From: Pleurocapsa sp. FMAR1
GTDB taxonomy: Bacteria > Cyanobacteriota > Cyanobacteriia > Cyanobacteriales > Xenococcaceae
DNA: 64,000 nt
Assembly: GCF_963665995.1 (NCBI RefSeq)
Contig: NZ_OY762512.1
Location: 4,588,001 to 4,652,000 of the forward strand
Direction of reading: 5' to 3'
Part shown: in pieces, positions 35,604-58,688 of the stretch
Layout of the letters: each line of letters starts with the position of its first letter
How positions within the stretch are numbered: position 1 is the stretch's first letter
Position numbers and translations under genes: made by a program
The notes under the pieces: generated by a model
The model's input: the letters and a program-made list of their open reading frames with translations, nothing else
Databases searched by the model: none
Told to the model about the DNA's origin: nothing

Positions 35604-36392
35604 CTAATGCAAAATTTGAGAGAGAAACTTTTGTAAACGTTCTTCCTTTGGATTATTAAAAAATTCATCGGGCGTGGTGTCAGCAACCAGAGTACCATCT
35701 GCTAGAAAGATAATGCGATCGGCTACTTCGCGGGCAAAGCCAACCTCATGAGTGACGCAAACCATAGTCATCCCCGATTCTGCCAGACTCCGCATAACAT
35801 CTAATACTTCTCTGACCATTTCTGGATCGAGTGCGCTGGTAGGTTCGTCAAACAGCATCACTTTAGGCTGCATGGCTAAAGCACGAGCGATCGCAACTCT
35901 TTGTTGTTGACCCCCAGAAAGTTGACCTGGATATTTATTGGCTTGATGGGCAATACCAACTTTTTCTAATAGTTCCATAGCACTTGCCTTGGCTTGGGAT
36001 TTGGATAAGCCTCGCAGGTGAATTGGTCCTAAAGTAATGTTATTAAGCACCGTCAAATGGGGAAACAAATTAAACTGTTGGAATACCATGCCCACTTCTC
36101 GGCGTAATAGTTCGATTCCTTTATTATTGTGAGCGATCGCAGTACCATCAATGGCGATACTGCCTTTTTGATAGGGTTCTAAACCGTTAAAGGTGCGAAT
36201 GAAGGTAGATTTACCCGAACCAGAAGGGCCCATTAGCACGACAACCTCACCTTGATTGATGGTTGTGCTTACGCCTTTGAGTACGTGAAAACCATTGTCA
36301 TACCATTTCTCTACGTCACGGGCGAGAATAATTGGTTTTGTTTCTAAGGTAGCCGTATTTGATAGGTTTGATTGCGGTTGAAAGTTAGTCAT
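35604..36392 (-). CDS. Polar amino acid ABC transporter ATP-binding protein (GlnQ-like)
   Basis: The 262 residues from the ATG at 36392 (frame open to 36455, which would overlap the next gene) contain Walker [10 protein letters not shown] (about 55-63), the Q loop [11 protein letters not shown], signature LSGGQQQR, Walker [15 protein letters not shown] and the switch His in [12 protein letters not shown]. It powers uptake together with the two permeases at 40269-41602 and the binding protein at 39355, although it is separated from them by two other transporter genes. Confidence 0.92.
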
Positions 36393-36433
36393 TTTTTTAC
36401 CTTCGATATTGAAAGTTATTTTTGAAATCTTGG

Positions 36434-37198
36434 TTAACGATAAAAATATTCCCACAGTAATTTGCCGACCAAAACTGTAGTAACGGTAATAAAAATCGGT
36501 TTAATAAACTTAGCTCCTTTTTTGGTAGCGAATGTCGAGCCAAAATAAGCACCAATAGCAACTCCAACCGCGCCAAAAATACCTTCGGGAAAACTAATTG
36601 CACCCAAAATCCAAAAAGATATGAGTGCAATAAGATTAGTCATAAGATTGATAACCTTAGCCGAACCAGTGCCACGCAGAAAATCTAATGACCAGATAGA
36701 CACTAAGGCAAAGACTAAAAAAGTACCTGCCCCTGGCCCAAAAAAACCATCATGAAAACCAATAATTAAGCCGAAGAACGCTAATTTTATAATCTGGATT
36801 GAATCATGGGTTTTGGCGATCGCCATATCGGCTTTTTCTAAGCCAAAGTTAGGTTTAAAGACAACAAATAAAGTAATTGCCACCATCAATAAAATTACGA
36901 TTGGTTCTGCCCAAGCTTTAGGTAAAAAACCAATCGAAAGACTACCAAACCAAGAACCAAAAACCGCAGGAATACCCATATAAATACAGGCTTGCCAATC
37001 AACCTGCTTGGCTTGAGCAAATTTAAAAGAGCTAGTCAGCACACCACAAGTTCCGCAGAGTTTGTTAGTGGCGATCGCCGTTGTTACAGGTAAGCCACTA
37101 AAGATTAAGCCTGGAATCATAATCATGCCTCCACCACCAGCGATCGCATCTACAAAGCCAGCTATAATTCCTGTGAAAAAGATAACGATTAGTATCAT
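36434..37198 (-). CDS. TSUP family (TauE/SafE) membrane permease
   Basis: The 254-residue protein has about eight hydrophobic segments. The TSUP signature [20 protein letters not shown] is near the N terminus and [18 protein letters not shown] in the second half is its internal repeat. Family members move sulfite, sulfoacetate, taurine-related or other organic anions. It stands between an amino acid ABC ATPase gene and a glutamate-type symporter gene on the same strand, so an organic sulfur or amino-acid-linked substrate is conceivable. Confidence 0.9.
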
Positions 37199-37293
37199 TT
37201 ATAGTTCTTGGCTTGTTTTTATCGAGAATAGGCTACTTAAATTGGCGTTGCATAGCTGCGAGATGATTATGAACAAAAAAGATTAATGATTCT

Positions 37294-37339
37294 CCCAGTC
37301 CCCTAGTCCCCTAGTCCCCTAGTCCCCCAGTCCCCAAGT
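37294..37339. repeat. Tandem 8-bp repeat (CCCCTAGT, about 5.7 copies)
   Basis: Imperfect CCCCTAGT units lie between the TSUP and symporter genes. It is a simple-sequence repeat prone to slippage. Confidence 0.85.
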
Positions 37340-37377
37340 CAGCCTCTACCATCCCATGAAGGTGCAACGCCCTTAAA

Positions 37378-38919
37378 TTAGATAGCAGTAGGGACTACTA
37401 CTGGCTCTTCTACAGTAGCTGGTGTGCCTTTGCCTTTCTCCAGGCGATCGACTACGCCAGCACCGACACAATCGCCCCAGACATTAACCGTCGTGCGACA
37501 GCGATCGAGAAACCAGTCAATTACTAAAATTAGAGAAACACCTTCAATGGGAATATTAACCGCCCGTAGCACGATTACCATCGTCACTAAGCCCGCTTCA
37601 GGAATTCCTGCTGCACCGATAGCTGCTAAAGTCGCTGTCAAGAAAATAACCACTATTTGACCAAAACTTAATTCAATGCCGTAAATTTGGGCGATAAATA
37701 CAGCAGCAACGGCTTCATAGAGAGCAGTTCCATCCATATTAATCGTCGCCCCCAAAGGCAAGACAAAATTAGCAATTCTAGAGGAAACATGGTTTTTTTC
37801 GATGACGCACTCCATCGATAAAGGCAGGGTGGCAGAACTAGAAGCGGTAGAAAAAGCCGTAGTTAAAGCGGGTAGCATCCTTTTGATATACGAAAAAGGA
37901 TTGCGTTTGCCAACGAATTTTAAGATTAAAGGTAAAACTACCAAACCGTGAATTAACAAAGCAATAATCACCGTAAAGGCATATTTACCCAAACTGGCAA
38001 ACTCGCTAGCAAAGCCAGTAAATCCCCCAGCTTCGCCCAAACGTCCTGCAATCAATGCACCGATGCCGAAAGGGGCGGTTAATAAAACCAAATCGATAAT
38101 TCTCATTATCGCTTCGTTTAGCCCTTCTACCAGACGAATCACTCGTTCACCCATTTCCCCCAAGGTAGTTAAAACACCGCCAAATAGTAGAGAGAAAATA
38201 ATTAATGGTAGTACATCATTATCGACCATTGCTCCAAAAAGATTTTGGGGTAATAAACCAACAATGACTTCTTTGAGAACTTCGCCAATAGAGCTTTGTT
38301 CTTTCCCTTTTACTTTGTCGGCAATTGCCAAATCTATTTGTATTCCCTGACCTGTAGCTTTTGGCGTTACTGTTTTTCCTGCTGGATTAGTCCAGCCAGT
38401 TACCGTTAGGCTATTGTTTTGAAATTTATCCTGGGGGGCAATTGTACCGCGAATATCGTTTTGATCTTTGAGAATCGCCATATAGCGATCGTCAAACGGT
38501 TTTTTGGCAGTTGCGCCATCAAGATTAATCGTGTTATTGCTTATGCTATAGTCAACATTTTCTAAAACTTGACCGCCTCTAAGAGCAATTCGATCTGCTT
38601 CAGTATTGGCAATTCCTGGCTGAATAATATTAACCAAAAGTAAACCTAATAAAACAGCTAACCCTGTGGTTATAGTGTAAAAAATGATTGTTTTACCGCC
38701 AATTCCTCCTATTTGACGAACATCTCCCAAACCTGTAATGCTAGTAATCATTGAGGTCATTACTAAAGGAATTACTAACATCAATAAGGCGTTAATAAAT
38801 AGTTCCCCAATAAAAGAAACAGAAGTTCCCACTGCGGGAATTAATCCACCAATTAAGATACCGACAATGATTCCAATCAATATCGGTATTAATAATGATT
38901 TTTGTTGTGTTTGAGTCAT
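37378..38919 (-). CDS. Dicarboxylate/amino acid:cation symporter (DAACS, GltP-like)
   Basis: The 513-residue protein carries the DAACS marks: the serine-rich STASSSATLPLSMECV reentrant loop, LPLGATINMDGTALYEAV with the NMDGT sodium/substrate motif, and AAIGAAGIPEAGLVTMVIV. About 110 hydrophilic residues (about 105-215) are inserted between the third and fourth membrane segments, making it longer than the usual 410-430. Typical substrates are glutamate, aspartate and C4-dicarboxylates with sodium or protons. It lies beside a polar amino acid ABC system. Confidence 0.93.
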   Translation of the reverse strand: MTQTQQKSLLIPILIGIIVGILIGGLIPAVGTSVSFIGELFINALLMLVIPLVMTSMITSITGLGDVRQIGGIGGKTIIFYTITTGLAVLLGLLLVNIIQPGIANTEADRIALRGGQVLENVDYSISNNTINLDGATAKKPFDDRYMAILKDQNDIRGTIAPQDKFQNNSLTVTGWTNPAGKTVTPKATGQGIQIDLAIADKVKGKEQSSIGEVLKEVIVGLLPQNLFGAMVDNDVLPLIIFSLLFGGVLTTLGEMGERVIRLVEGLNEAIMRIIDLVLLTAPFGIGALIAGRLGEAGGFTGFASEFASLGKYAFTVIIALLIHGLVVLPLILKFVGKRNPFSYIKRMLPALTTAFSTASSSATLPLSMECVIEKNHVSSRIANFVLPLGATINMDGTALYEAVAAVFIAQIYGIELSFGQIVVIFLTATLAAIGAAGIPEAGLVTMVIVLRAVNIPIEGVSLILVIDWFLDRCRTTVNVWGDCVGAGVVDRLEKGKGTPATVEEPVVVPTAI

Positions 38920-39354
38920 TTTATGTAGTCAGTCAAATATTTTATAAACTGATTATCTAAGCAAAATACAGACTATGCAGTAGCTTTTGTTGCAATTCAC
39001 CATAGATATAAATTATTGTTTATTATTTGTGTTCATTTAGTTTATGCACAGAAAAAAAACTTAACTGATTTAAACTGAAACAATTGATAATATAAAAACT
39101 TACTAACTGACGTTACGCAATACAACGAAAGATCGATACTTTCAACAAGCACGTGGAAGCAGAAAAATAAATACTACCTACTCTTCACAGATTAATTAGT
39201 GCGTAACATCAGCGACCGAAAAATTTTGATTCTTAACGTCAGAGAGAAACAATTTAATCTTTTCCCTTTTCCCCTTAACCCTTTCCCAGTCTCAACCGAT
39301 TAATTTGCTTCTTAGGAGTAGAAGTTACTACAATTTTTGTTTACTTATATTTTG
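38920..39354. other. Intergenic region between symporter and binding-protein genes
   Basis: These 435 bases hold a 106-bp inverted-repeat element (39107-39212) and otherwise AT-rich DNA. The symporter promoter must lie here because the gap is too long for simple read-through. No RNA gene was recognised. Confidence 0.45.
39107..39212. mobile_element. 106-bp MITE-like element (CTGAYGTTACGCA family), copy 1
   Basis: CTGACGTTACGCA on the left and TGCGTAACATCAG on the right are inverted repeats with one mismatch in 13. A second element with the same ends lies at 49628-49721. No target duplication was visible. Confidence 0.75.
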
Positions 39355-40257
39355 CTAAGTAGTAGCAGTAGCAAAATCTTTGGGCAGAGGTTCGCCAAAC
39401 CACTCTATAGACAATTGATTTAATTTCCCAGATTGTTTGAGATTGGCAATAATATTATTTACCTGCTGTAAAAGTTTTGTATCCCCTTTACGAATGCCAA
39501 CATAACAAGGAGAATTTTTGAGGATAAATTTATTCTCAATTTTTTGGTCGGGATTGTCTTGAATTAATTTGGCTGCTACTGCATTTGCTGTGGCAATCAA
39601 ATCTACCTGTCCCGATACCAATGCCGAAGCTGTCAAACTATTGTTGGCATAGCGTTTTATGTCTACCTTACCTGGAGGCAGCTTAGAGATTTCCAGATCT
39701 TCTAAAGAACCTTGCGCCACACCTATAGTCTGCCCTTTAAGATCGTCAAGAGAACTAATTTCAATATTAGGTCTGCCGTAAACCCCAGAGAAAAAAGGTG
39801 CATAGGGTTGGGAAAAGTCAATAATTGCTGCTCTTTCTTCGTTTTTGCCTAAACTAGAAATTACTAGATCGACCCGATCTGTTTGTAGAAAAGGAATGCG
39901 GTAATTTCCGACCACCGTGACAAGTTCTGCTTTTACCCCCAATCCTTTAGCAATTTGATTTGCTACGTCGATATCATATCCCTGAGGCTGCATATTGACT
40001 CCTACCCCCCCAAAGGGAGGAAAGTCAGCAGGTACGGCAATATTGATTTCTCCCGACTTTTGGATTTCTTCTAAAGTCTTTCCTGTCGATATCTGGGCAA
40101 TATTTTTGGGAGAGATATTTGCTTGGGATTTAACTGCATCTGAATCTCCTCCCGAACACGAAGCAATACCCACAGTCAGAAAAAAACTGGCAAAGAATAA
40201 TGCTAAAGCTCTTTTAAAGCCATTGGGAAATAGTGCTTTGAGAAAATCTAAGGTCAT
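39355..40257 (-). CDS. Polar amino acid ABC transporter substrate-binding lipoprotein
   Basis: The 300-residue protein has a lipoprotein signal (lipobox IASC, Cys at about 34) and a family 3 solute-binding domain: GEINIAVPADFPPFGG, GYDIDVANQIAKGLG, DLVISSLGKNEERAAIIDFSQPY, and the LKGQTIGVAQGS hinge region. Family 3 proteins bind polar, acidic or basic amino acids. The gene is 11 bases after the second permease gene and is certainly co-transcribed with it. The acidic amino acid symporter downstream hints at glutamate/aspartate, but specificity is not proven. Confidence 0.93.
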   Translation of the reverse strand: MTLDFLKALFPNGFKRALALFFASFFLTVGIASCSGGDSDAVKSQANISPKNIAQISTGKTLEEIQKSGEINIAVPADFPPFGGVGVNMQPQGYDIDVANQIAKGLGVKAELVTVVGNYRIPFLQTDRVDLVISSLGKNEERAAIIDFSQPYAPFFSGVYGRPNIEISSLDDLKGQTIGVAQGSLEDLEISKLPPGKVDIKRYANNSLTASALVSGQVDLIATANAVAAKLIQDNPDQKIENKFILKNSPCYVGIRKGDTKLLQQVNNIIANLKQSGKLNQLSIEWFGEPLPKDFATATT

Positions 40258-40268
40258 GGCGATCGCTC

Positions 40269-40922
40269 TTAAGCCTCATAAGATAATTTCTTTTCTAAAT
40301 GCTGACTCCAGATGGATAGGGGATAGCAGACTATAAAATAAATCAAACCTGCCAAACCAAATATCAGCAAAGATTGCAAAGTCACGTTATTAATCAAAGC
40401 TGCTGCCCTCGATAGTTCGGTAAAGCCAATAATTGAAGCTAGAGAAGTCCCTTTAATTACCTGCACTAAAAAGCCAACGGTAGGTGCGATCGCACTTCTT
40501 ACTGCTTGGGGTAGGATAATTAGCTGCATTTGTTTTACGTAGCCAAATCCAATTGCCGAACCCGCTTCCCACTGTCCTTGGGGTAAAGATTCAATCGAAC
40601 CACGCCAAATATCAGCCAAAAAGGCACTAGTAAATCCTGTCAAAGCCAAACTAGCTGCTGCTAAAGGAGATAAGTTGATGCCAAACACTACCGAAAGACC
40701 AAAGAACGCCAAAAATAGCTGTAGCAGTAAGGGTGTTCCCTGAAAGAACTCGACGTAGACAAAGCTAATACCTCTTAGCCATTTACTAGCAGAGATCCGC
40801 ATTAGCATAACGATAAAACCGACAATGCCACCCCCAATAAAGGCGATCGCGCTTAGAATTAGTGTCCACTTAGTAGCAATGACCAAGTTAATAAATATAC
40901 GCGAAAGTGTAAATCCGTCCAT
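40269..40922 (-). CDS. Polar amino acid ABC transporter permease (second subunit)
   Basis: The 217-residue inner-membrane protein has the HisM/GlnP permease domain, with the EAA loop ESLPQGQWEAGSAIGFGYVKQMQLIILPQAVR that docks on the ATPase, and about five membrane helices. It lies 5 bases after the first permease gene and 11 before the binding-protein gene. Confidence 0.93.
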   Translation of the reverse strand: MDGFTLSRIFINLVIATKWTLILSAIAFIGGGIVGFIVMLMRISASKWLRGISFVYVEFFQGTPLLLQLFLAFFGLSVVFGINLSPLAAASLALTGFTSAFLADIWRGSIESLPQGQWEAGSAIGFGYVKQMQLIILPQAVRSAIAPTVGFLVQVIKGTSLASIIGFTELSRAAALINNVTLQSLLIFGLAGLIYFIVCYPLSIWSQHLEKKLSYEA

Positions 40923-40927
40923 AGCAA

Positions 40928-41602
40928 TTAACGTCTATATTTAGCAAACTTAAATGCCCGATCTTCAATTAGAAAAGCCACCCCTTTTATCAGCCAGACA
41001 ATTACTAGATAAAGCAATGCCAGGGTAAAATAAATCTCAAAGCTGCGGAAGGTGCGAGAGTTTAAATAATCTCCTGCATAGGTTAAATCTTCGGCTGCAA
41101 TTTGTGAGACAACGCTGGTAAACAGTACAGCTAGAATTACTTGACCGATTAAGGCTCGATATATATTGGCTAAAGCTGGCGGAATAATGATGTAGCGAAA
41201 TATTGCCAGTTTCTTAAAGCCAATCGCCATCCCCGCTTCCCATTGTCCTTTGGGAATGCTTTCGACTCCAGCCCGCACTATTTCTGTAGAATATGCCCCA
41301 AAATTAACCGCCAAAGAAAGAATTGCCGCTTGTTCTGCCGATAGCTTGATGCCTAGATTGGGCAGACCAAAAAAGATAAAAAATAACTGAATTAAATAGG
41401 GTGTGTTGCGAATCACCTCTACATAAGCCAAAGCGATCGCATTAAGAATTTTATTGTCAGAAGTCCGACATAGTGAACCTAAAATACCAATAATCAGCCC
41501 AAAGGCGATCGCCAGGAACGAGATCTTTATAGTCAGCCAAGCTCCAGCCAGCAAGACATCGATATTTTCCCAGATTACGGAAAAATCAAATGTGTAGTTC
41601 AT
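40928..41602 (-). CDS. Polar amino acid ABC transporter permease (first subunit)
   Basis: The 224-residue protein of the same HisM/GlnP family has the EAA loop ESIPKGQWEAGMAIGFKKLAIFRYIIIPPAL. It is the first gene of the permease-permease-binding protein operon and would form a heterodimer with the following gene product. The upstream region contains a MITE-like element, so the promoter must lie within 41603-41746 or inside the element. Confidence 0.93.
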   Translation of the reverse strand: MNYTFDFSVIWENIDVLLAGAWLTIKISFLAIAFGLIIGILGSLCRTSDNKILNAIALAYVEVIRNTPYLIQLFFIFFGLPNLGIKLSAEQAAILSLAVNFGAYSTEIVRAGVESIPKGQWEAGMAIGFKKLAIFRYIIIPPALANIYRALIGQVILAVLFTSVVSQIAAEDLTYAGDYLNSRTFRSFEIYFTLALLYLVIVWLIKGVAFLIEDRAFKFAKYRR

Positions 41603-43728: not shown

Positions 43729-44847
43729 ATGTCGATTACAAAAAAAACAGCTTTGATTTACTGTGAAAAGCAATTTGGCTTAATGGACGGTAAAACCGCA
43801 GCAGGTTTAGTTAGACACTCCCAAACTTATAACATTGTGGGGGTGATTGATAGTTCCTTAGCAGGCAAAGATGCAGGAGAACAATTAGATAATAAGAAAA
43901 ACAATATTCCCATCTTTGCTAACCTAAAGTCAGCTTTAGATAAACTACCAAACATTCCCGATTGCTATATTTATGGCAAAGCACCCTTAGACGCTTCTAT
44001 ACCTATTGCTGAAAGAGTCTTAGTCTTGGAAGCAATGACTAAAGGGATGGATATCATTAATGGTCTTCATGAGTTCTTTTCTGAAGATCCTGAATTTAGC
44101 GAGATGGCTATTCGGTGCGGGGTTAAAATTCAAGACATTAGAAAACCGCCGAAATTAGAAGACCTCCATGTCTTTACGGGGCAAATTGCTAAAGTTAATA
44201 TTCCTGTGATTGCTGTCTTAGGTACTGACTGCGCCTGCGGAAAAATGACTACCGCAGTGGAATTAAATAAAGCCTTGAATAATTCAGGGATCAAATCAGT
44301 GTTGGTTGCCACAGGTCAAACAGGCTTAATGCAAGGAGCAACCTATGGTGTATCCATAGACGCGCTCGTGTCTCAATTTGTGGTTGGAGAAATAGAAAAT
44401 GCCGTTGTCCAGGCCTTTGAACAAGAAAATCCCGATATTATTCTCGTAGAAGGTCAAAGTGCCGTCTCTCATCCCGCCTTTATGAGTTCTGTAGGTATTT
44501 TAAAAGGATGTATGCCTGACGGGGTTATTTTGCAACATCCTCCTAGCAGGAAATTTCGCTGTGATTTTCCCCTGTTACCAATGCCCAGCATTGTTAGTGA
44601 AATTCGTCTAATTAAAGCAATTTGCCAAACTCAGGTAATTGCGATCGCTTTAAGCCATGAAAATTTAACTGATATAGAAGTTCTAGAAACTATTAAAAGC
44701 TATGAAGACCGTCTTTTGTTACCAACTACAGATGTCTTGACCTATGGCTGTGCAAAACTTATTCGCGCTTTATATAATCTTTTCCCCTCTCTCGTACGGC
44801 AAAACAAACAAAATTCTCAGATGCCTCCTTTATTAATAAAAGGGTAA
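43729..44847 (+). CDS. DUF1611 (DgcN-like) P-loop protein
   Basis: The 372 residues comprise an N-terminal Rossmann-like domain (to about 150) and a P-loop domain with Walker A GTDCACGKMT (about 165-174), ATGQTGLMQG and LVEGQSAVSHP. DUF1611 proteins include DgcN, reported in marine bacteria to act in D-glutamate metabolism together with DgcA. Here the next gene is a PLP-dependent amino acid racemase, which suits a D-amino-acid function. The exact reaction in this organism is unproven. It is the first gene of a three-gene operon. Confidence 0.85.
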   Translation: MSITKKTALIYCEKQFGLMDGKTAAGLVRHSQTYNIVGVIDSSLAGKDAGEQLDNKKNNIPIFANLKSALDKLPNIPDCYIYGKAPLDASIPIAERVLVLEAMTKGMDIINGLHEFFSEDPEFSEMAIRCGVKIQDIRKPPKLEDLHVFTGQIAKVNIPVIAVLGTDCACGKMTTAVELNKALNNSGIKSVLVATGQTGLMQGATYGVSIDALVSQFVVGEIENAVVQAFEQENPDIILVEGQSAVSHPAFMSSVGILKGCMPDGVILQHPPSRKFRCDFPLLPMPSIVSEIRLIKAICQTQVIAIALSHENLTDIEVLETIKSYEDRLLLPTTDVLTYGCAKLIRALYNLFPSLVRQNKQNSQMPPLLIKG

Positions 44848-44882
44848 ATGCTAAATGTTGCCCTAGATGTTGCCTTAAAAAT

Positions 44883-45947
44883 ATGAAAGCGTTTCTGCCA
44901 AGAATAGAAATTACTCTATCTAAAATAGAGCATAATGCTCGGATGTTATGCGAACTTTACGGACAAGGGGGTATTTCTTTGATGGGAGTCTCTAAAGCAG
45001 TATTGGGAGAACCTTTAATTGCCTCGGCGATGATTCGAGGAGGTGTCAAATTTATTGCCGACTCTCGTTTGGAAAATATTCAAAGGATGAGAAATGCCAG
45101 AATATCCGCTCAGTTTGTATTACTCCGCACTGCCCCAAGTCAAGCAGAATCGATTGTGGAAGATGTAGATATTAGCCTTAATACAGAAATTGAGACCCTT
45201 GAGAAGCTTAATTATTACGCATCCTTGCATAACAAAATTCACCAAATTATTTTAATGGTAGAAATGGGGGATTTGCGAGAAGGGATACTTGCCGACGATA
45301 TTTTCTTGTTTATAGAAAAGATTATTCCCTTAGATCATCTCAAAATTATCGGACTCGGCTGTAATTTGGCTTGTTATGGAGGTATTAAGCCTGACAATCA
45401 AAAAATGAATCAATTATCAGCACTAACCGACGCGGTGGAAAGGAAATTTCAAATTAAATTACCCTTAATCTCTGGGGGAAACTCGGCTAACTATGAATGG
45501 TATAAATCCACCAAAAACGTCGGGCGAATTAACAATCTGCGCGTGGGAGAATCGATTCTTTTGGGCTGTGGAACGGTTAACCGCAAAGCCATTCCTCAAT
45601 TACATACTAATGCTTTTAAATTGATTGGGGAAGTTATTGAATCGAAAATCAAACCTTCTCTGCCTTTTGGAGAAACTGGTCAGGATGCCTTTGGTAATAT
45701 TCCCGTATTTCGCGATCGCGGTAGGCACACAAGAGCAATTATTGCTTTGGGAAAACAGGACACCCTGATATCTGGCTTAAGTCCAGATCGAGATTTAGAA
45801 ATTTTAGGATCTAGTAGCGATCATCTGGTTCTCGACTGCAAAAACTCTTATTTAAAGGTGGGAGGGGGAGTAAATTTTAACCTGGATTATGGAAGTCTTT
45901 TGACAGCAATGACTTCGCCTTTTATCAAAAAGCAATTTATTAAATGA
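44883..45947 (+). CDS. PLP-dependent amino acid racemase (ornithine/alanine racemase-like, fold III)
   Basis: The 354-residue protein has the alanine racemase N-terminal TIM-barrel pattern, with PLP lysine at about 38 in LMGVSKAVLG, EMGDLREGI, and SGGNSANYEW for phosphate binding. The sequence style is closer to ornithine racemase (Orr) and YhfX than to biosynthetic Alr. It would interconvert L- and D-forms of an amino acid. The gene starts 35 bases after the DUF1611 stop, and its last bases overlap the next start (ATGA), showing translational coupling. Confidence 0.87.
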   Translation: MKAFLPRIEITLSKIEHNARMLCELYGQGGISLMGVSKAVLGEPLIASAMIRGGVKFIADSRLENIQRMRNARISAQFVLLRTAPSQAESIVEDVDISLNTEIETLEKLNYYASLHNKIHQIILMVEMGDLREGILADDIFLFIEKIIPLDHLKIIGLGCNLACYGGIKPDNQKMNQLSALTDAVERKFQIKLPLISGGNSANYEWYKSTKNVGRINNLRVGESILLGCGTVNRKAIPQLHTNAFKLIGEVIESKIKPSLPFGETGQDAFGNIPVFRDRGRHTRAIIALGKQDTLISGLSPDRDLEILGSSSDHLVLDCKNSYLKVGGGVNFNLDYGSLLTAMTSPFIKKQFIK

Positions 45948-48038: not shown

Positions 48039-48164
48039 TCGAGGCTGAGTAAAGATGAGGTATTAGATACTAAACCAACAATGTATATCTAGGTACAGTA
48101 ATTCGATCATCTTATTGAAATTATTGAAACAATAAACAGTATATTTTGATTGGGAAATAAAGTG

Positions 48165-49589
48165 ATGAGCAACACCGAACTCACCAATTCAAACCAAAGT
48201 AACTTGATTTTGGGATTAGAAGATAATCCACCGTTTCAAACCGCTTTTTTGGTTTCTCTACAGCACGTCTGCGTGGTTTTTGTCCCTAGTGTAACCCCAG
48301 CCATTTTGATCGGTCGCGCCCTAAACTTAGATGCTGCAAGTATTAGCTATATCATTGGCATGACTTTATTGGTGGCTGGATTTGCCACCTTTGTTCAAGC
48401 AAGACGCATCGGTCCAATTGGTTCGGGTTTACTGAGTATTCAAGGACCAAGCTTTGCTTTTTTGCCACCTATTTTTAGCATTATTGCAGCAGGTAACGCA
48501 GCAGGAAAAACACCAGAAGAAACTCTAGCATTGATTCTGGGTGTAGGATTTTTTGGTTCGTTTATCCAGATTATTTTGAGTCGCTTTCTGCAATTTGCTC
48601 AACTTATTTTTCCCCCACTTGTGACGGGAACAGCCGTAACTCTAATCGGTTTGACTTTGATTCGTTTTGGAATGTACGATATGGCGGGCGGAGATGCAGC
48701 CAAGGAACTGGGTGATTATGGCAGCCTTCGTTATTGGGCAATTTCGATTCCCGTGTTTTTTACGGTAGCTGTTTGTAGTGCAACTTCAAATCGTTATCTT
48801 AGAATGGGTTCAGTGATTATCGGTTTAATTGTTGGTTCTATTATCTCCGTCTTTATGGGTATGACTGACTTTAGCCAGTTAGGAAGTATACCTGCTTTTA
48901 ATATACCTATCCCGTTTCGGTTTGGTTTAGATTTTAATTTTGCTACCTTTATTCCCTTTGCGATTATCTACTTTGCTACATCTCTAGAAGTTATTGGCGA
49001 TATTACTGCAACTTCGATGGTAACGGGAGAGCCAATTAGTGGTTCAAAATATATTAGACGGCTTAAAGGTGGACTGTTGGGAGATGGCTTTAATTCCTTT
49101 ATTGCCTCTTGCTGTAGCACCTTACCTACAGTGACATTATCCCAAAATAATGGAATTATTCAGCTTACAGGGGTAGGCAGTCGCTATATCGGCTTTTATG
49201 TCGGGGGAATTTTGGCTTTTTTAGGATTATTTCCGATCATCGGCGGAATTTTAACCGCTATTCCTGCTCCTGTATTTGGTGCAGCGATCATGCTGATGTT
49301 TGGTACGGTTGCGGTGGCAGGGTTTAGTATTCTAGGTGAAATTGAGATGACCAATCGTTCTTTAATAATTGTCGGGGCATCATTAGCAGCAGGATTGGGA
49401 GTAACTTATGTCCCCGAAGCACTGGCGGGATTTCCCGAACAGCTACGTGGTGTCTTAGAATCAGGTATTTCTGTCGGTTCTCTTTGCGCCTTGATTCTCA
49501 ATCTTGTCTTGCCCAAGTCAGCAAAAGATCGGATGGTTGAAGAGCCAGCGTCTTTAGAACCAGAAACAAGTCTTACAAAAAATAGCTGA
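48165..49589 (+). CDS. NCS2 purine permease (uracil-xanthine/urate type), first of two
   Basis: The 474-residue membrane protein (frame open from TTG 48150; the ATG at 48165 is preferred) has 14 predicted hydrophobic segments and NCS2 motifs: FQTAFLVSLQHVCVVFVPSVTPAIL, GSGLLSIQGPSFAF, SLEVIGDITATSMVTGEPI, and SQNNGIIQLTGVGSRYIG, the NCS2 signature. The UapA/XanQ branch takes up xanthine or urate with protons. It opens the purine island. Confidence 0.92.
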   Translation: MSNTELTNSNQSNLILGLEDNPPFQTAFLVSLQHVCVVFVPSVTPAILIGRALNLDAASISYIIGMTLLVAGFATFVQARRIGPIGSGLLSIQGPSFAFLPPIFSIIAAGNAAGKTPEETLALILGVGFFGSFIQIILSRFLQFAQLIFPPLVTGTAVTLIGLTLIRFGMYDMAGGDAAKELGDYGSLRYWAISIPVFFTVAVCSATSNRYLRMGSVIIGLIVGSIISVFMGMTDFSQLGSIPAFNIPIPFRFGLDFNFATFIPFAIIYFATSLEVIGDITATSMVTGEPISGSKYIRRLKGGLLGDGFNSFIASCCSTLPTVTLSQNNGIIQLTGVGSRYIGFYVGGILAFLGLFPIIGGILTAIPAPVFGAAIMLMFGTVAVAGFSILGEIEMTNRSLIIVGASLAAGLGVTYVPEALAGFPEQLRGVLESGISVGSLCALILNLVLPKSAKDRMVEEPASLEPETSLTKNS

Positions 49590-52742: not shown

Positions 52743-52921
52743 TCCCTTGTTTTTAAACTTTTAGATTAAGTGAAATCGGGATCAAAATCGTAGTTGTATG
52801 ACCAATAGTAATTTTATGAAAAATAATTAATTAGTAGCTGAGGATACATCTTTATTGATTTTAACTGTATACAGTATGCAATATTAAGCAAAAAATTATT
52901 AATGACTAGGTTTTTACCTTT

Positions 52922-53914
52922 ATGCTAGTCACAAAAGAAGAAATATTCAAAAGGTTTTGGTATCCTGTGATGCCAACCTCACAAATGTCAGAGCAACCTC
53001 AAGGATTTGAGTTATTAGGTCAAAAAATTGTCTTGTGGTTAGATGATTTGGGTCAACCAGCAGTGGCAAGCGATCGCTGTTGTCATCGTTCGGCACAGCT
53101 ATCTAAAGGCAAAGTTATCGACGGCAATCTTGTCTGTCCCTATCACGGCTGGCGGTTTGACGGCTCGGGAGTCTGCGTTAAAGTTCCTCAGCTAGAAGAC
53201 AATAGCCAGATACCTAAAACATATCAAATAAATACCTTTTTGGCTCAAGAACGTTACGGATATGTGTGGGTATGCCTGGGTGAACCTCTAAATGGAATTC
53301 CTGAAATAGCTGAAGCCAAAGATCCTAGTTTTCGTTTGATTCCCGAATTTTATGAAACTTGGCACTGTGCAGGCTTAAGAGTGATGGAAAACGAATTCGA
53401 TCTAGCTCATCCTACCTTTGTCCACACTACGACTTTTGGGAGTGAAGCTCATCCTGTTCCTGACGCAATAGAAGTAAGGGAAACTGAATACGGTATTACT
53501 GGTACAGCTACTTTGGGGGTGGTTAACCCCGAACAGCAGCAGAAAAATCTCAAAATGGATGAAGGAATAACTACCAGAGTTTTAGATTTAGACTGGTATT
53601 TACCCTTTACCTGCAAGCTGAGGATCAATTATCTCAACGGCTTAGTCCATATCATAGTTAATACCACGACCCCAATTAACGATTCAGCTTCGCAAATTGT
53701 GCAGTTTTGTTTGCGAAATGATACCGAAGCTGACGTGAAAGCAAAAGACGTGGTGGCATTCGATCGGGCAGTAACCTTAGAAGACAAAGCTGTATTAGAG
53801 ACTACTGATTATGATGTGCCTCTGGATATAAAAATAGAACAACACATGATGACAGATAAGCCAGGGATTTTGATGCGACGAAAGTTGAGCAAGCTTTTGG
53901 CAAGTAACAAGTAA
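52922..53914 (+). CDS. Rieske-type ring-hydroxylating oxygenase, candidate (hypo)xanthine oxidase (HpxD-like)
   Basis: The 330-residue oxygenase has a Rieske 2Fe-2S centre, C53-x-H55 and C72-x2-H75 (RCCHRSAQL and CPYHGWRFDG). The mononuclear iron site is N157, D160, H163 and H168 in ENEFDLAHPTFVH. It contains no reductase domain. Position between NCS2 permeases and urate hydroxylase suggests oxidation of a purine. In Klebsiella, HpxD with reductase HpxE is implicated in hypoxanthine/xanthine oxidation, and NdmA-type Rieske enzymes demethylate methylxanthines. The purine substrate is inferred from context; a pheophorbide-type or other substrate remains possible. Confidence 0.85.
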   Translation: MLVTKEEIFKRFWYPVMPTSQMSEQPQGFELLGQKIVLWLDDLGQPAVASDRCCHRSAQLSKGKVIDGNLVCPYHGWRFDGSGVCVKVPQLEDNSQIPKTYQINTFLAQERYGYVWVCLGEPLNGIPEIAEAKDPSFRLIPEFYETWHCAGLRVMENEFDLAHPTFVHTTTFGSEAHPVPDAIEVRETEYGITGTATLGVVNPEQQQKNLKMDEGITTRVLDLDWYLPFTCKLRINYLNGLVHIIVNTTTPINDSASQIVQFCLRNDTEADVKAKDVVAFDRAVTLEDKAVLETTDYDVPLDIKIEQHMMTDKPGILMRRKLSKLLASNK

Positions 53915-53949
53915 AAGATAGGGGTGAACGAATGTTCGCCTGTACAGCA

Positions 53950-55389
53950 ATGAATATTGACCAAGATGTTATAGATCGCCAGGACATAAATCGACCTAAA
54001 GGTGAACCGCCTCGTGGGGGTTGGCAAGGTGCGATCGCCAATTATTTTGAATTCGATTACTATCGCACTAACTTTCGCACTGAGATCGTAGCTGGTGTGA
54101 CTACCTTTATGACCATGGCGTACATTTTGGTAGTTAACCCGTTGATCCTTTCTGATGCCATCTTTCTGAACGAACCAAAAGATTTATTTGCCGAGTTAGT
54201 AGTTGCCACAGCAGTATCGGCAGGTATTGGCACGCTGATTATGGGTTTATTAGCGAAATATCCCTTTGCCCTGGCACCAGGTATGGGAATCAATGCTTTT
54301 TTTGCCTATTCGGTGGTGCTGGGTTTGGGTATCGATTGGCGTCTAGCTTTGGCTTGTGTCTTTGTTGAAGGTTTAGTCTTTATTCTGCTCACTGTTACCG
54401 ATATTCGTCGCCATCTAATTACTGCCGTACCTACTTCAATCAAATCAGCAACGACGGTGGGAATTGGCTTATTTTTAGCTTATATCGGCTTAGGTGGGGC
54501 AACAGCCACAGGCGGTGCGGGGCTAATTGTGGCTAATGAAGTTACCAAAACCAATTTTGGTAGTTTGGCACAGCCCCAAAGCTTGATGGCAATATTTGGT
54601 ATTTTTCTGACGGCTTTTTTTATGGTGCGACGCATCAAAGGAGCATTACTTTGGGGAATTATCGGCACTGCTATTTTGGGCTGGGTATTTGGCGTAGCTA
54701 ACGCACCTCAGGGATTTGCCTCGATTCCTGCCTTTCCCAAAGATTTATTTGGGGCAGCATTTATCGGCTTAGGAGGAATTAACGGTAGTAACTGGATTGA
54801 CTTTCTGGCTGTACTGCTGGTATTTCTCTTTGTCGATATGTTCGATACCATCGGCACATTGGCTGGGGTGGGAATGCAGGCAGGATATATCGATGAGAAT
54901 GGCGAATTACCAAGGGCTAATCGAGCTTTAACCGCAGATGCGATCGCAACTACGGCGGGGGCAGTCATGGGAACATCTAGCGTTACCACCTTTGTGGAGT
55001 CGGCTTCAGGGGTAGCCGAGGGAGGACGTACTGGCTTTACATCGGTAATAGTTGCGGGGTTATTCTTTATTTCCTTAATATTTACACCGATTTTTGAAGC
55101 TATACCAGCCTTTGCCACTACTCCAGCCCTAACTATTGTCGGCGTATTGATGATGGCAAGTATTACCAGTATTAACTGGGAGGATTTAACCGAAGCTATA
55201 CCAGCGTTTCTGACTATCTTTTTTATTCCCTTTGCTTTTTCAATTGCAGCAGGCTTATCTATTGGCTTAATTGCCTATCCTCTATTAAAAACCTTTAAAG
55301 GTAAAGCTGAAGATGTTCCCATAGTCACCTGGATTCTGGCAGCTATATTTATCGCTCGCTTTATTTTTATGACCCTGCGCTTTGGATAA
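53950..55389 (+). CDS. AzgA-type hypoxanthine/guanine/adenine permease
   Basis: The 479-residue protein matches the AzgA branch of NCS2: an N-terminal FRTEIVAGVTTFMTMAYILVVNP, ALAPGMGINAFFAYSVV, FLFVDMFDTIGTLAGVG, and GAVMGTSSVTTFVESASGVAEGGRTGFTSV. These transport adenine, guanine and hypoxanthine with protons. The upstream ATG at 53932 lies in a GGTGAACGAATGTTCGCC hairpin repeat, so the ATG at 53950 is preferred. It follows the Rieske oxygenase gene by 35 bases, probably in one transcript. Confidence 0.93.
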   Translation: MNIDQDVIDRQDINRPKGEPPRGGWQGAIANYFEFDYYRTNFRTEIVAGVTTFMTMAYILVVNPLILSDAIFLNEPKDLFAELVVATAVSAGIGTLIMGLLAKYPFALAPGMGINAFFAYSVVLGLGIDWRLALACVFVEGLVFILLTVTDIRRHLITAVPTSIKSATTVGIGLFLAYIGLGGATATGGAGLIVANEVTKTNFGSLAQPQSLMAIFGIFLTAFFMVRRIKGALLWGIIGTAILGWVFGVANAPQGFASIPAFPKDLFGAAFIGLGGINGSNWIDFLAVLLVFLFVDMFDTIGTLAGVGMQAGYIDENGELPRANRALTADAIATTAGAVMGTSSVTTFVESASGVAEGGRTGFTSVIVAGLFFISLIFTPIFEAIPAFATTPALTIVGVLMMASITSINWEDLTEAIPAFLTIFFIPFAFSIAAGLSIGLIAYPLLKTFKGKAEDVPIVTWILAAIFIARFIFMTLRFG

Positions 55390-55475
55390 CTGTAAGGGCT
55401 GTTCGCAAACAACCCCCACAAATTAATGCTTTGGCGAAATGCCTCTTTTGATAACTAACAACTAATAACTAAATT

Positions 55476-56876
55476 ATGGTACAACCTACAAATCAAGAAT
55501 TAACTTTAGAAGAAGATATTAAAACACAAGCACCTGCTTCGATTGAGTCCGATTTAATTTATGGTCTAGAAGCGCGTCCACCGTTTGTGGAATCAATCTT
55601 TGTAGCGTTGCAGCACGTATTTGCCTGTTTTGTCGGTATCATTACCCCTGGGCTGATTATCTGCGGTGCGTTAGAAGTGCCTCCTGCCGATACTACCTTT
55701 ATTCTCAGTATGTCTTTGTTTGTCTCAGGTATTGCTACCTTTATCCAAGCCAAAAGATTTGGACCAGTAGGTTCAGGCTTATTAAGCATTCAGGGGACAA
55801 GCTTTGCTTTTCTCGGTCCAATTATCGGCGCGGGATTGGCAGTAAAAGGCTCTGGCGGTACTGTTGAAGATGCTTTAGGATTGATTTTTGGTCTTTGCTT
55901 TTTTGGTGCATTTATCGAAATATTTATCAGTCGCTTTTTACATTTAGCCAATAAAATTATTACGCCAATGGTGACAGGAGTAGTGGTCACTTTAATTGGT
56001 TTGACTCTGATTAAAGTCGGCATTACTTCCATGGGCGGTGGTGTAGTAGCCCAAAATAATGAAACTTTTGGTAATCCTGTTTATTTGGGAGTGTCACTCC
56101 TAGTCTTGGCGGTAATCGTTGGTTTAAACTGCACGACTAACAACTATCTACGGATGTCATCTATTGTCATTGGTTTAGTTGTCGGTTATGTAGTGTCAAT
56201 ACCTTTGGGACTAGTGGATTTTAGCAATTTAGCTGGCTTACCTGCAATTGCCTTGCCAATTCCATTTCGCTATGGCTTTAGCTTTAACTTCGGGGCATTT
56301 ATTCCTTTTGCCTTTTTGTATGTAATTACCTCTATCGAAACTATTGGCGATCTTACCGCAACCTCGGCTATTTCGGGAGAGCCAATAGAAGGACCTGTAT
56401 ACTTTCGCAGAATTAAAGGAGGAGTCTTAGGAGACGGGGTTAACTCAATTCTTGCTGCCTGCTTTAATACCTTTCCCAATACTAGCTTTAGCCAAAACAA
56501 CGGCGTAATTCAGCTTACGGGTGTAGGCAGTCGTTATGTAGGTTATTTTATCTCGGTAATTTTTGTCATTCTTGGTTTATTTCCGATTATTGCAGGAACT
56601 TTCCAAGCTTTACCCCAGCCAGTATTAGGCGGTGCAACTATTGTCATGTTTGGGACGGTAGCAGTAGCAGGAATTAAAATTATCTCCTGCGTTAATCTTA
56701 CTAAGCGTAACTCAATTATTCTTGCCACTGCTTTAGGTTTGGGCTTGGGCGTTACCTTTGTGCCTGAAATTTTAGATAAGTTGCCAGCCTTGATCAAAAG
56801 TCTTTTCGCTTCTGGGATCTCTACAGGCGGACTCACAGCGTTAGTTCTTAATTTGATTTTGCCAGGCAGAGAATAA
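55476..56876 (+). CDS. NCS2 purine permease (uracil-xanthine/urate type), second of two
   Basis: The 466 residues are clearly paralogous to the gene at 48165, sharing VGSGLLSIQG-SFAFL, IGDLTATSAISGEPI and SQNNGVIQLTGVGSRYVG. Both have 14 hydrophobic segments. One may favour xanthine and the other urate, but this cannot be read from the motif alone. It follows the AzgA-type gene by 86 bases and precedes the urate hydroxylase gene by 161 bases. Confidence 0.93.
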   Translation: MVQPTNQELTLEEDIKTQAPASIESDLIYGLEARPPFVESIFVALQHVFACFVGIITPGLIICGALEVPPADTTFILSMSLFVSGIATFIQAKRFGPVGSGLLSIQGTSFAFLGPIIGAGLAVKGSGGTVEDALGLIFGLCFFGAFIEIFISRFLHLANKIITPMVTGVVVTLIGLTLIKVGITSMGGGVVAQNNETFGNPVYLGVSLLVLAVIVGLNCTTNNYLRMSSIVIGLVVGYVVSIPLGLVDFSNLAGLPAIALPIPFRYGFSFNFGAFIPFAFLYVITSIETIGDLTATSAISGEPIEGPVYFRRIKGGVLGDGVNSILAACFNTFPNTSFSQNNGVIQLTGVGSRYVGYFISVIFVILGLFPIIAGTFQALPQPVLGGATIVMFGTVAVAGIKIISCVNLTKRNSIILATALGLGLGVTFVPEILDKLPALIKSLFASGISTGGLTALVLNLILPGRE

Positions 56877-57037
56877 TTTCATTGAGCATTAAACATTTAT
56901 CAGATTTAGAAGTAGGGTGGGTTAGAGAGCTAATTTAAGATATCTAGCCAAGTCTTGAAACCTATCGTAACCTACCATCAAAAACTACTTATTTGATTAA
57001 TTGACGATTAACTACTAGCAATCAAAAAATATTCAAA

Positions 57038-58201
57038 ATGTATCAATTAAAAGCAATTGTGATTGGCGCGGGAATGGCTGGATTAGCTACAGGTATTGCC
57101 TTACGTCAGGCGGGATACGAGGTAGAAATCTATGAGAAGACTACAAAACTTCGTCCTGCGGGGGCGGGAATTTCTCTGTGGTCGAATGGAATTAAAGTTC
57201 TAAATAAATTAGGACTGGGTAAGGAAGTTGCTGCCATTGGCGGACAGATGAACCGCATGGAATACCGTAATCTTCAAGGAGAGGTTCTAAATGATGTCAA
57301 CTTGATTCCTTTAATGGAACAGGTAGGACAAAGACCTTATCCTGTATCCCGTACTGATTTACAGCAGATGATGCTCGACGCCTTTGGCGAGTCTGATGTA
57401 AAAATGGGTATGCGCTGTGTAGAAGTTAAGCAAGATGTAGATAGTGCCACCGCTATCTTTGAAGATGGTAGTACTGCCACAGGAGATGTGGTTATTGGTG
57501 CTGATGGGATTCATTCAGTAGTGCGTACTTATCTTGCTGGTGGAAAAATAGAATCTCGCTATGCGGGTTATGTTAACTGGAATGGTTTGGTAGAAGCTAG
57601 TCCCGATTTAGCTGAAAATGATGTTTGGGTAATTTATGTTGGCGATGGCAAAAGGGCATCGATGATGCCTATAGGAGGCGGACGTTTTTACTATTTTATG
57701 GGTTGTCCAAAACCCCAAGGAACAAAAACCCCTCCTGAAGAAATTCGCGCTGAATTAAAAGAAACCTTTGCAGGATGGGCGCAACCAGTGCAAAACCTGA
57801 TTGAAAAGCTCGACCCCGAACAGGTTAACCGCCTTGAAATTAGCGATATCGATCCTCTTCCTAGCTTAGTTGAAGGTAGAATTGCCTTAGTAGGAGATTC
57901 TGCCCATGCTACCACACCGACTTTGGGACAAGGAGGCTGTCAGGCGATGGAGGATGCGGAAGTGCTATGTCGCTATTTGATAACAACTAACATCAGCGTC
58001 GAAGATGCCCTCAAGCGTTATCAAGCAGAACGAAAAGAACGGGTAGCTAAGTTGGTTTTAAAAGCCCGCAAGCGCACCGACACTATTTATAATAAAGAAC
58101 CAGATTTGACCAAGCAATGGTATGAGCAGTTAAAACAAGAACAAGCCGAGGATGTTACAGGTGCGATCGCCAAAATAATTCTTGGTGGACCATTGCATTA
58201 A
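57038..58201 (+). CDS. hpxO: FAD-dependent urate hydroxylase (HpxO-like)
   Basis: This 387-residue class A flavin monooxygenase converts urate to 5-hydroxyisourate using NADH and oxygen. Visible: VIGAGMAGLATGIALRQAG for FAD (about 8-26), IGADGIHSVVR with the DG motif (about 153-163), YAGYVNWNGLVE, and the FAD-pyrophosphate GDSAHATTPTLGQGGCQAMED (Asp287). Arg206 in GKRASMMP and Tyr218 in GRFYYF have the 12-residue spacing of the Klebsiella HpxO catalytic pair Arg204/Tyr216. The next gene hydrolyses the product. Without urate context it would be called a salicylate-hydroxylase-like enzyme. Confidence 0.9.
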   Translation: MYQLKAIVIGAGMAGLATGIALRQAGYEVEIYEKTTKLRPAGAGISLWSNGIKVLNKLGLGKEVAAIGGQMNRMEYRNLQGEVLNDVNLIPLMEQVGQRPYPVSRTDLQQMMLDAFGESDVKMGMRCVEVKQDVDSATAIFEDGSTATGDVVIGADGIHSVVRTYLAGGKIESRYAGYVNWNGLVEASPDLAENDVWVIYVGDGKRASMMPIGGGRFYYFMGCPKPQGTKTPPEEIRAELKETFAGWAQPVQNLIEKLDPEQVNRLEISDIDPLPSLVEGRIALVGDSAHATTPTLGQGGCQAMEDAEVLCRYLITTNISVEDALKRYQAERKERVAKLVLKARKRTDTIYNKEPDLTKQWYEQLKQEQAEDVTGAIAKIILGGPLH

Positions 58202-58224
58202 CGAGCAACCCCCTAAAGTAGTAT

Positions 58225-58278
58225 GGTGGGCAAAAAATAAATTTGTTAGTAATTGAAAATCAATTATTTTTGCCCACC
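58225..58278. repeat. Inverted repeat GGTGGGCAAAAAATAA ... TTATTTTTGCCCACC
   Basis: Arms of about 15 bases lie between the urate hydroxylase and 5-hydroxyisourate hydrolase genes, related to the structure at 23232-23299. It might attenuate transcription within the operon. Confidence 0.65.
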
Positions 58279-58328
58279 GCAATAACCAGTCTCATCTTCG
58301 CGGGATCTAAATAATTAGTAATCAATTT

Positions 58329-58688
58329 ATGTCAGGTAAATTAACAACTCACGTTTTAGATACGGCAAATGGTTGTCCTGGTTCGGGAATTGCGATCGCA
58401 CTTTGGAAGCTCGATCTAAACATAGATTCCAAAACCTTATTAAAAACCGTCAAAACCAATCATGACGGACGTACTGACGAACCGTTGTTAGTAGGGGATG
58501 AATTAGAAACTGGGGTATATGAGCTAATTTTCACTGTTGGTAACTATTTTGCACGCTATGGAGACTATCCTAATCCCTCTTTTTTAGATGAAATTCCCCT
58601 TCGTTTCGGCGTTAACGATATCAAGGCTCACTATCACGTTCCCTTGCTAGTTTCTCCTTGGTCTTATAGTACCTATCGTGGAAGTTAA
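58329..58688 (+). CDS. uraH: 5-hydroxyisourate hydrolase (transthyretin-like)
   Basis: The 119-residue enzyme opens the 5-hydroxyisourate ring to OHCU. It has the family N terminus KLTTHVLDTANGCPGSGIAIALWKL (His8 catalytic, Arg in GRTDEPL), HYHVPLLVSPWSYSTYRGS at the end, and the diagnostic C-terminal tetrapeptide YRGS. Length is normal for a cytoplasmic form with no signal peptide. It lies 127 bases after the urate hydroxylase gene. The following enzyme, OHCU decarboxylase, and allantoinase are not in the window. Confidence 0.96.
   Translation: MSGKLTTHVLDTANGCPGSGIAIALWKLDLNIDSKTLLKTVKTNHDGRTDEPLLVGDELETGVYELIFTVGNYFARYGDYPNPSFLDEIPLRFGVNDIKAHYHVPLLVSPWSYSTYRGS

What the first reader, a model, noticed from the sequence alone, without database searches (positions are those of the whole stretch)
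52922..58688. Purine catabolism island with a Rieske oxygenase as candidate molybdenum-free xanthine oxidase
A Rieske oxygenase, AzgA-type permease, xanthine/urate permease, FAD urate hydroxylase and 5-hydroxyisourate hydrolase lie in a row on one strand, with another NCS2 permease at 48165. Uptake, urate hydroxylation and 5-hydroxyisourate hydrolysis are clear from family motifs. What is missing between hypoxanthine/xanthine and urate is a xanthine dehydrogenase, and the Rieske enzyme fills that slot by position. Klebsiella HpxD/HpxE sets a precedent. A cyanobacterial version without an adjacent reductase would be new to me. Purine nitrogen scavenging is the likely purpose.
Basis: partly seen in the sequence, partly recalled or inferred. 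Interest (0 to 1): 0.72.

Follow-up and report, generated by a model that had tools for sequence, protein, structure and literature searches.

The report
Molybdenum-free xanthine hydroxylase candidate in cyanobacteria
A cyanobacterial nitrogen-scavenging operon carries an iron-based oxygenase that, in most related genomes examined, stands where the usual molybdenum enzyme for turning xanthine into uric acid is absent, so it is probably a second, molybdenum-free way to break down purines.

Summary
The cluster is real: Rieske oxygenase, two NCS2-family permeases, urate hydroxylase HpxO and 5-hydroxyisourate hydrolase on one strand, behind an NtcA-type promoter motif. The Rieske protein belongs to one clade (100/98), neither pheophorbide-oxygenase-like nor inside the Klebsiella HpxD clade. 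Of 15 carriers among 292 cyanobacteria, 13 have HpxO (22 of 292 overall). Among these 22, genomes with the window's subclade lack xanthine dehydrogenase and HpxD in 7 of 8; the 14 without it all have one or the other (p 5e-5; pattern seen before it was tested). In a second set, 1 of 10 HpxO genomes with the subclade has an XDH-range protein. The closest relative, Pleurocapsa CCALA 161, has the operon and no Mo hydroxylase. A Variovorax relative has a xanthine riboswitch directly upstream. Best reading: a Mo-free xanthine (perhaps hypoxanthine) hydroxylase, probably ferredoxin-fed. HpxDE is a functional precedent; separate origin is likely, but an AU test does not exclude a sister relation. No activity was measured.

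The parts
52834..52847 (+). NtcA-type site GTAGCTGAGGATAC
   Evidence: GTAN8TAC at -88 of the Rieske start; same place, different spacer, in L107 and L050
52870..52875 (+). -10 element TACAGT, 22 bp after the NtcA-type site, inside the palindrome ACTGTATACAGT (52864-52875)
   Evidence: extended pattern in 6 of 20 upstream regions, 0.14 expected, 0 of 500 shuffles; palindrome
52922..53914 (+). Rieske oxygenase (330 aa), candidate Mo-free xanthine hydroxylase; Rieske ligands C53/H55/C72/H75, iron site N157-D160-H163-H168
53932..55389 (+). Xan_ur_permease-family transporter (AzgA-like by recall)
   Evidence: kept next to Rieske in L107, L114
55476..56876 (+). NCS2 permease, PbuX type
   Evidence: TIGR03173 430.5 bits over cut-off
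57038..58201 (+). FAD-dependent urate hydroxylase HpxO
   Evidence: NF033623 609.5 bits, cut-off 500
58329..58688 (+). 5-hydroxyisourate hydrolase
   Evidence: TIGR02962 125.8 bits, cut-off 87.45
48150..49589 (+). second NCS2 permease, with GTAN8TAC at -67 (48083-48096, no matching -10)

Best explanation
The operon takes up purines and oxidises them for nitrogen. The Rieske protein is the Mo-free step: a Rieske/mononuclear-iron monooxygenase (trimeric, by family) that hydroxylates xanthine at C8 to urate, and perhaps hypoxanthine at C2 and C8, using O2 and electrons from the cell's plant-type ferredoxin instead of a dedicated HpxE reductase. HpxO then makes 5-hydroxyisourate, the hydrolase makes OHCU, and an OHCU decarboxylase elsewhere in the genome makes allantoin. 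NtcA would switch the operon on under nitrogen shortage. In most relatives examined this enzyme replaces xanthine dehydrogenase; in this genome it coexists with a fused XdhA-type Mo hydroxylase, probably as an alternative for low molybdenum or another metabolic state. Shown here: gene content, clade, intact ligands, co-occurrence, complementary distribution, promoter motif, riboswitch upstream of a relative. Inferred: substrate, reaction, electron donor, NtcA control, reason for two enzymes.
For: Co-occurrence: orthologs (56% identity or more) in 15 of 292 genomes, 13 of these with HpxO, which only 22 of 292 have (Fisher 3.6e-15). Distribution: of 22 HpxO genomes, those with the window's subclade (8) have XDH or HpxD in 1 (the window's own); those without it (14) have XDH or HpxD in 14 (p 4.7e-5, one count per family 9e-4). 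Second set of 14 genomes: 10 with HpxO; of these 7 have no PF02738 protein, 2 only a PaoC-range one, 1 an XDH-range one. Three close relatives show three states: G292 Rieske without Mo hydroxylase, G070 XdhA-type without the Rieske ortholog, window both. Neighbours of the Rieske gene include HpxO, HIUase, OHCU decarboxylase, PuuE allantoinase, guanine or 8-oxoguanine deaminase. A 42.6% relative in Variovorax has an RF03054 xanthine riboswitch 35 bp upstream (48.1 bits, cut-off 36), a class that binds xanthine and uric acid (PMC7373994, section 5 and passages read). Profile search of solved structures: best NdmA, a purine N-demethylase (1.1e-48). Electron donor: an HpxE-like match beyond the ferredoxin domain in 5 of 15 carriers (G000, G060, G005, G091, G193); in the other 10 only short ferredoxin-type matches.
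Against: No activity data. This genome has a probable XDH, so the enzyme is not needed here by logic. Two carriers of the group (G091, G177) and 4 of the 14 second-set genomes lack HpxO over the cut-off (two Calothrix, two MAGs). In 3 of 9 discovery and 6 of 14 second-set genomes the Rieske gene is not beside purine genes in the stretch held. Group members outside the subclade sit in genomes that have XDH (5) or lack HpxO (1). The subclade was drawn from the tree, but I chose it for the test after seeing the pattern, and its support is moderate (96; 92/90). Genomes without XDH could import urate. Position 281, a purine contact in NdmA by recall, is Asp in the group and Asn in HpxD, so the pocket differs. 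A single-sequence search of solved structures and Foldseek both rank saxitoxin-pathway Rieske enzymes above NdmA. The riboswitch was found in 1 of 27 related loci scanned, and not in the window region.
Confidence: 0.7

Rival explanations
1. The Rieske enzyme hydroxylates guanine at C8 to 8-oxoguanine, which 8-oxoguanine deaminase turns into urate, so xanthine is bypassed.
For: 8-oxoguanine deaminase (NF006055 674 bits, cut-off 532, for the G129 copy) stands near the Rieske gene in G172, G129 and Pleurocapsa L107. 5 of 18 subclade genomes with HpxO have a hit in that deaminase's score range and no guanine deaminase over cut-off. Invariant Asp281 could pair with the guanine N1-H/NH2 edge (inference).
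Against: 10 of 18 subclade genomes do have guanine deaminase, in some near the Rieske gene (G286, L114, L116), which points to xanthine as substrate. Two genomes with XDH also lack guanine deaminase and have a hit of the 8-oxoguanine range (G060, G070), so that pattern is not specific to the Rieske gene.
Confidence: 0.1
2. It is an N-demethylase for methylated purines (NdmA/NdmB-like) that feeds xanthine into the ordinary pathway.
For: NdmA is the best profile match among solved structures and NdmB is high; an AU test does not reject a common clade with NdmA/NdmB (p 0.141).
Against: Xanthine would then need an oxidase: 7 of 8 discovery HpxO genomes of the subclade have neither a PF02738 protein nor HpxD, and 7 of 10 in the second set have no PF02738 protein (HpxD not checked there). 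The NdmA pair Asn/Phe (or NdmB Gln/Leu) is Asp/Thr here. The best tree puts NdmA/NdmB with HpxD, not with the window clade.
Confidence: 0.08
3. Here the Mo enzyme does the xanthine step and the Rieske protein has drifted to another substrate or is a recent redundant acquisition.
For: The XdhA-type enzyme is present and purine-linked in relatives; the same-genus genome G070 keeps the permease-HpxO operon and its promoter motif without the Rieske gene.
Against: The Rieske gene is intact, first in the operon behind the conserved promoter motif, and 86% identical to that of Pleurocapsa CCALA 161, in which no PF02738 protein was found. The XdhA-type motif GGGFGNKQ lacks the canonical Glu, so its own purine activity is unproven.
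Confidence: 0.12

Closest known systems
HpxD/HpxE, Mo-independent xanthine hydroxylase of Klebsiella (record NZ_CP091979.1)
   Same: VanA-type Rieske oxygenase; cluster with HpxO, NCS2 permease, OHCU decarboxylase, HIUase; proposed to stand in for XDH.
   Different: 31% identity; separate clades (100/98 and 100/99); Asn/Phe against Asp/Thr in the pocket and Gly against Asn157; no adjacent HpxE. HpxD orthologs proper occur in 5 of 292 cyanobacteria, not in this one.
NdmA/NdmB methylxanthine N-demethylases
   Same: Best profile match among solved structures (1.1e-48), Foldseek TM 0.81-0.84; purine-binding Rieske enzymes.
   Different: 25-27% identity; different pocket pair; no reductase next door; another clade in the best tree.
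Genes under the xanthine (NMT1) riboswitch
   Same: A 42.6% relative in Variovorax has RF03054 directly upstream, and a second copy facing a divergent gene that looks like an NMT1-type binding protein (by eye).
   Different: No RF03054 in the window region or in the other 26 related loci scanned; some cyanobacterial operons carry an NtcA-type promoter motif instead.
Xanthine dehydrogenase (TIGR02963/TIGR02965; XdhA type NF043082)
   Same: Proposed to fill the same step.
   Different: Unrelated Mo enzyme; nearly exclusive with the window subclade among HpxO genomes, but co-resident (XdhA type) in this genome.

Membership tests
HpxD | falls in one clade with Klebsiella HpxD | tested here: not met
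   Own clade 100/98, HpxD clade 100/99; but holding both together is not rejected (AU p 0.257)
HpxD | best match of Klebsiella HpxD in the genome | tested here: not met
   among the genome's 12 Rieske proteins found, HpxD hits L005:1520-2503 with 169 bits, the window protein with 134
HpxD | partner reductase HpxE adjacent | tested here: not met
   none in the operon; best genome match 36% at 4176429, far away
HpxD | cluster with HpxO and urate-pathway genes, Rieske and VanA_C domains | tested here: met
HpxD | oxidises hypoxanthine/xanthine without Mo | not testable with these tools
   needs assay or mutants
Pheophorbide a oxygenase (PaO) | PaO C-terminal domain PF08417 | tested here: not met
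   VanA_C instead; three other Rieske proteins of the genome have PaO
NdmA/NdmB | substrate-pocket pair N/F (NdmA) or Q/L (NdmB), swapped in the crystallised NdmA QL mutant | tested here: not met
   Asp281 and Thr285
Rieske oxygenase, VanA type | C-X-H..C-X2-H cluster and N-x2-D-x2-H-x4-H iron site | tested here: met
   invariant in alignments of 18 and 35 sequences
Xanthine dehydrogenase (the genome's fused enzyme) | canonical XdhB model TIGR02965 over cut-off, GGGFGGKE motif | tested here: not met
   292 bits against 849.5; best NF043082 651 (cut-off 780); GGGFGNKQ as in E. coli XdhA

The most novel reading that the evidence does not exclude
Cyanobacteria evolved, apart from HpxD, a second lineage of Rieske oxygenase that hydroxylates xanthine without molybdenum and without its own reductase, fed by photosynthetic ferredoxin under NtcA control. 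It has displaced xanthine dehydrogenase in many lineages, while HpxD did so in others, and close relatives of this strain show Rieske only, Mo enzyme only, or both.
Probability: 0.45. Interest if true: 0.75.

Novelty: new variant of a known kind. Interest (0 to 1): 0.6.

Why it matters
Xanthine to urate is usually taken to need molybdenum. If true, part of the phylum does it with iron, O2 and probably light-driven ferredoxin, which would change how purine nitrogen use is predicted from cyanobacterial genomes (absence of XDH would no longer mean absence of the pathway). It would also give a second family beside HpxD for which the chemistry of Rieske C8 hydroxylation of purines could be studied, and a natural set of close relatives with either or both enzymes.

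Tried and rejected
PaO/chlorophyll breakdown: rejected (VanA_C domain, tree). HpxD orthology: not supported. Gap argument for this genome: rejected. A strict link of the Rieske subclade with 8-oxoguanine deaminase: not specific. Xanthine riboswitch in cyanobacterial clusters: none in the window region or in the cyanobacterial loci scanned. Palindrome ACTGTATACAGT at the -10 as a shared operator: exact only in the window, L107 and L088 (G070) of the 18 loci scanned, absent at the OHCU and XdhA-type loci, left open. The deeper branching of window clade, HpxD and Ndm is not resolved. Row L131 was misread over a frame break in the tree; for I dropped it and 24 other rows, as long, distant or redundant ones. 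For one search I kept 20 of the 24 upstream regions (dropped: three inner genes of the window operon and an ABC gene in L050, none with an exact site; with all 24: 8 sites, 2.35 expected, 0 of 300 simple shuffles). Papers: the listings of searches (most of them capped) showed none on a Rieske xanthine enzyme in cyanobacteria; the original Klebsiella papers are recalled or known through PMC7373994, I saw none of them.
Full report
Observation. Pfam and NCBIfam confirm the Rieske/VanA_C protein, the permeases, HpxO (609.5 bits, cut-off 500) and 5-hydroxyisourate hydrolase. The AzgA label is recalled. The window is G000:C1:4588001-4652000 in a one-contig genome of 5.43 Mb; the nearest named relative seen is Pleurocapsa sp. 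CCALA 161.

The rest of the pathway in this genome. OHCU decarboxylase is at 735999-736457, beside a gene that looks like a GntR-type regulator (recall), guanine deaminase at 2737228-2738445. Four PF02738 Mo-hydroxylase loci exist. Three are nearest the PaoC aldehyde oxidoreductase model, below its cut-off. The fourth, 912 aa with fused FeS part, has a FAD-type subunit and genes that look like XdhC and MobA (by recall) beside it; it scores best with XdhA (NF043082 651, cut-off 780) and carries the E. coli XdhA motif GGGFGNKQ, not the canonical GGGFGGKE. In G005 its ortholog is in a row with OHCU decarboxylase; in G070 it is divergent from a permease and an adenosine-deaminase-family gene. I take it as a probable, unproven, purine hydroxylase. 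The premise that XDH is missing is therefore wrong, or at least unsafe, for this genome.

The Rieske group. Of 292 cyanobacterial genomes 15 carry 19 proteins with 56% identity or more over at least 275 residues; the next match is 37%. The Rieske and iron ligands are invariant in alignments of 18 and 35 sequences. The 80-row tree and the 55-row careful tree (25 rows dropped) give the group as one clade (100/98), apart from a clade of Klebsiella HpxD, an Acinetobacter protein and two cyanobacterial proteins (100/99), and from NdmA/NdmB. Holding the window clade with HpxD, or with NdmA/NdmB, is not rejected (AU p 0.257 and 0.141), so separate origin is likely but not shown. HpxD's best match in this genome is another Rieske protein. 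Positions of the NdmA pair are Asp281/Thr285 (Val in a few) in the group and Asn/Phe in the HpxD clade; that they touch the substrate is recalled and hinted at by the crystallised NdmA QL mutant.

Distribution. HpxO over cut-off is in 22 of 292 genomes. 13 of the 15 carriers have it (Fisher 3.6e-15). HpxD orthologs are in 5 of 292, all 5 with HpxO. PF02738 is in 50 of 292; among the HpxO genomes ten proteins lie in the XDH score range: they fall in one blastp cluster, and the three I ran are canonical XdhB, over 1000 bits. Among the 22 HpxO genomes: window subclade without PF02738 or HpxD in G039, G116, G121, G129, G172, G215, G286 (7); subclade with XdhA-type in G000 (1); no subclade but XDH or HpxD in 14 of 14 (XdhA-type in G070, G005; canonical range in G008, G133, G157, G213, G255, G262, G011, G060, G170, G193; HpxD only in G185, G289). 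Fisher 4.7e-5, one count per family 9e-4; for XDH alone 0.0015. I saw the pattern before testing it, so I took a second set: 14 genomes reached through loci taken as subclade members (12 placed in it in the tree; L115 was not in the tree and L131 not placed reliably). 10 have HpxO; of these 7 have no PF02738 protein, G297 and G304 only one in the PaoC score range, G299 one in the XDH range. Completeness of these genomes is not told and HpxD was not searched in them. G292 (Pleurocapsa CCALA 161) has Rieske, two permeases, HpxO, OHCU decarboxylase and 8-oxoguanine deaminase in a row and no PF02738 match.

Neighbourhood. In the subclade the Rieske gene is near HpxO, HIUase, OHCU decarboxylase, PuuE, or guanine or 8-oxoguanine deaminase in 6 of 9 discovery genomes, the window's included, and at 8 of 14 second-set loci; some loci are short. 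Of the 45 more distant Rieske loci L142-L186 none had an HpxO, HIUase or OHCU decarboxylase hit (tblastn 1e-12, less sensitive in other phyla).

Regulation. GTAN8TAC-N20..24-TAN3T, the NtcA-activated promoter form (consensus recalled), stands at -88 of the Rieske gene in the window, Pleurocapsa and G121, and before the operons of G070, G172 and Tychonema (spacing 22 in five, 20 in one): 6 of 20 regions, 0.14 expected, 0 of 500 shuffles (20 of the 24 regions). In G070 a promoter with the same -10 palindrome stands before the permease operon, without the Rieske gene. The Variovorax relative (42.6%) has RF03054 at 8899-8965 of L100, 35 bp before the Rieske gene, and a second copy facing a divergent gene that looks like an NMT1-type binding protein (by eye); the class binds xanthine and uric acid (PMC7373994, section 5 and three passages read). 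It was found in 1 of 27 related loci scanned, and a laxer rescan of six gave none.

Electron supply. Klebsiella HpxE matches beyond its ferredoxin domain in 5 of 15 carriers (G000 36%, G060, G005, G091, and a split match in G193); the other 10 show only short ferredoxin-type matches. NdmA docks a plant-type ferredoxin domain (PMC12445004, passage read). Photosynthetic ferredoxin as donor is inference.

Structure. AlphaFold2 on 35 sequences: pLDDT 94.9, pTM 0.91. Foldseek: saxitoxin-pathway Rieske enzymes first, then NdmA, a guaiacol O-demethylase, dicamba monooxygenase and NdmB. In sequence, the single protein finds saxitoxin-pathway enzymes first and NdmA next, the profile NdmA first. The fold says Rieske monooxygenase, not the substrate.

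Verdict. A Mo-free xanthine hydroxylase is the best reading of the Rieske subclade (0.7). It would work like HpxD; it is not shown to be HpxD. In this genome it is a second route beside a probable Mo enzyme.

Noticed in passing
L066 (G185) 9447-10379, L065 (G170); also G289, G011, G193: HpxD orthologs in 5 of 292 cyanobacteria, all with HpxO; next to guanine deaminase in G185 and G289, and near a permease in G185.
   Followed up: partly
L125, L127-L129, L133-L135, L061, L063, L064: Tandem pairs of the same Rieske group, in several loci with a binding protein that looks NMT1-type (recall; no NCBIfam hit) and an amidohydrolase; substrate unknown.
   Followed up: no
L112:10693-10769, L052:12897-12965: Glutamine riboswitches near two purine clusters; in L052 just before a small ORF that looks like a glutamine synthetase inactivating factor (recalled).
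   Followed up: no
window 35604-41602: Amino-acid-type ABC transporter genes whose homologs lie next to the Rieske/HpxO clusters of G121 and G129; possible purine-related uptake.
   Followed up: no
window 52864-52875: Perfect palindrome ACTGTATACAGT over the -10 of the operon, exact also in Pleurocapsa L107 and in G070; possible operator.
   Followed up: partly
L005:1520-6864: Another VanA-type Rieske gene of this genome with genes that look like an ABC transporter and a permease, about 8.5 kb from the XdhA-type locus; HpxD's best match here.
   Followed up: partly
window 43729-45947: Two adjacent ORFs that look like a DUF1611 protein and an alanine-racemase-like protein (recalled, not searched).
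   Followed up: no
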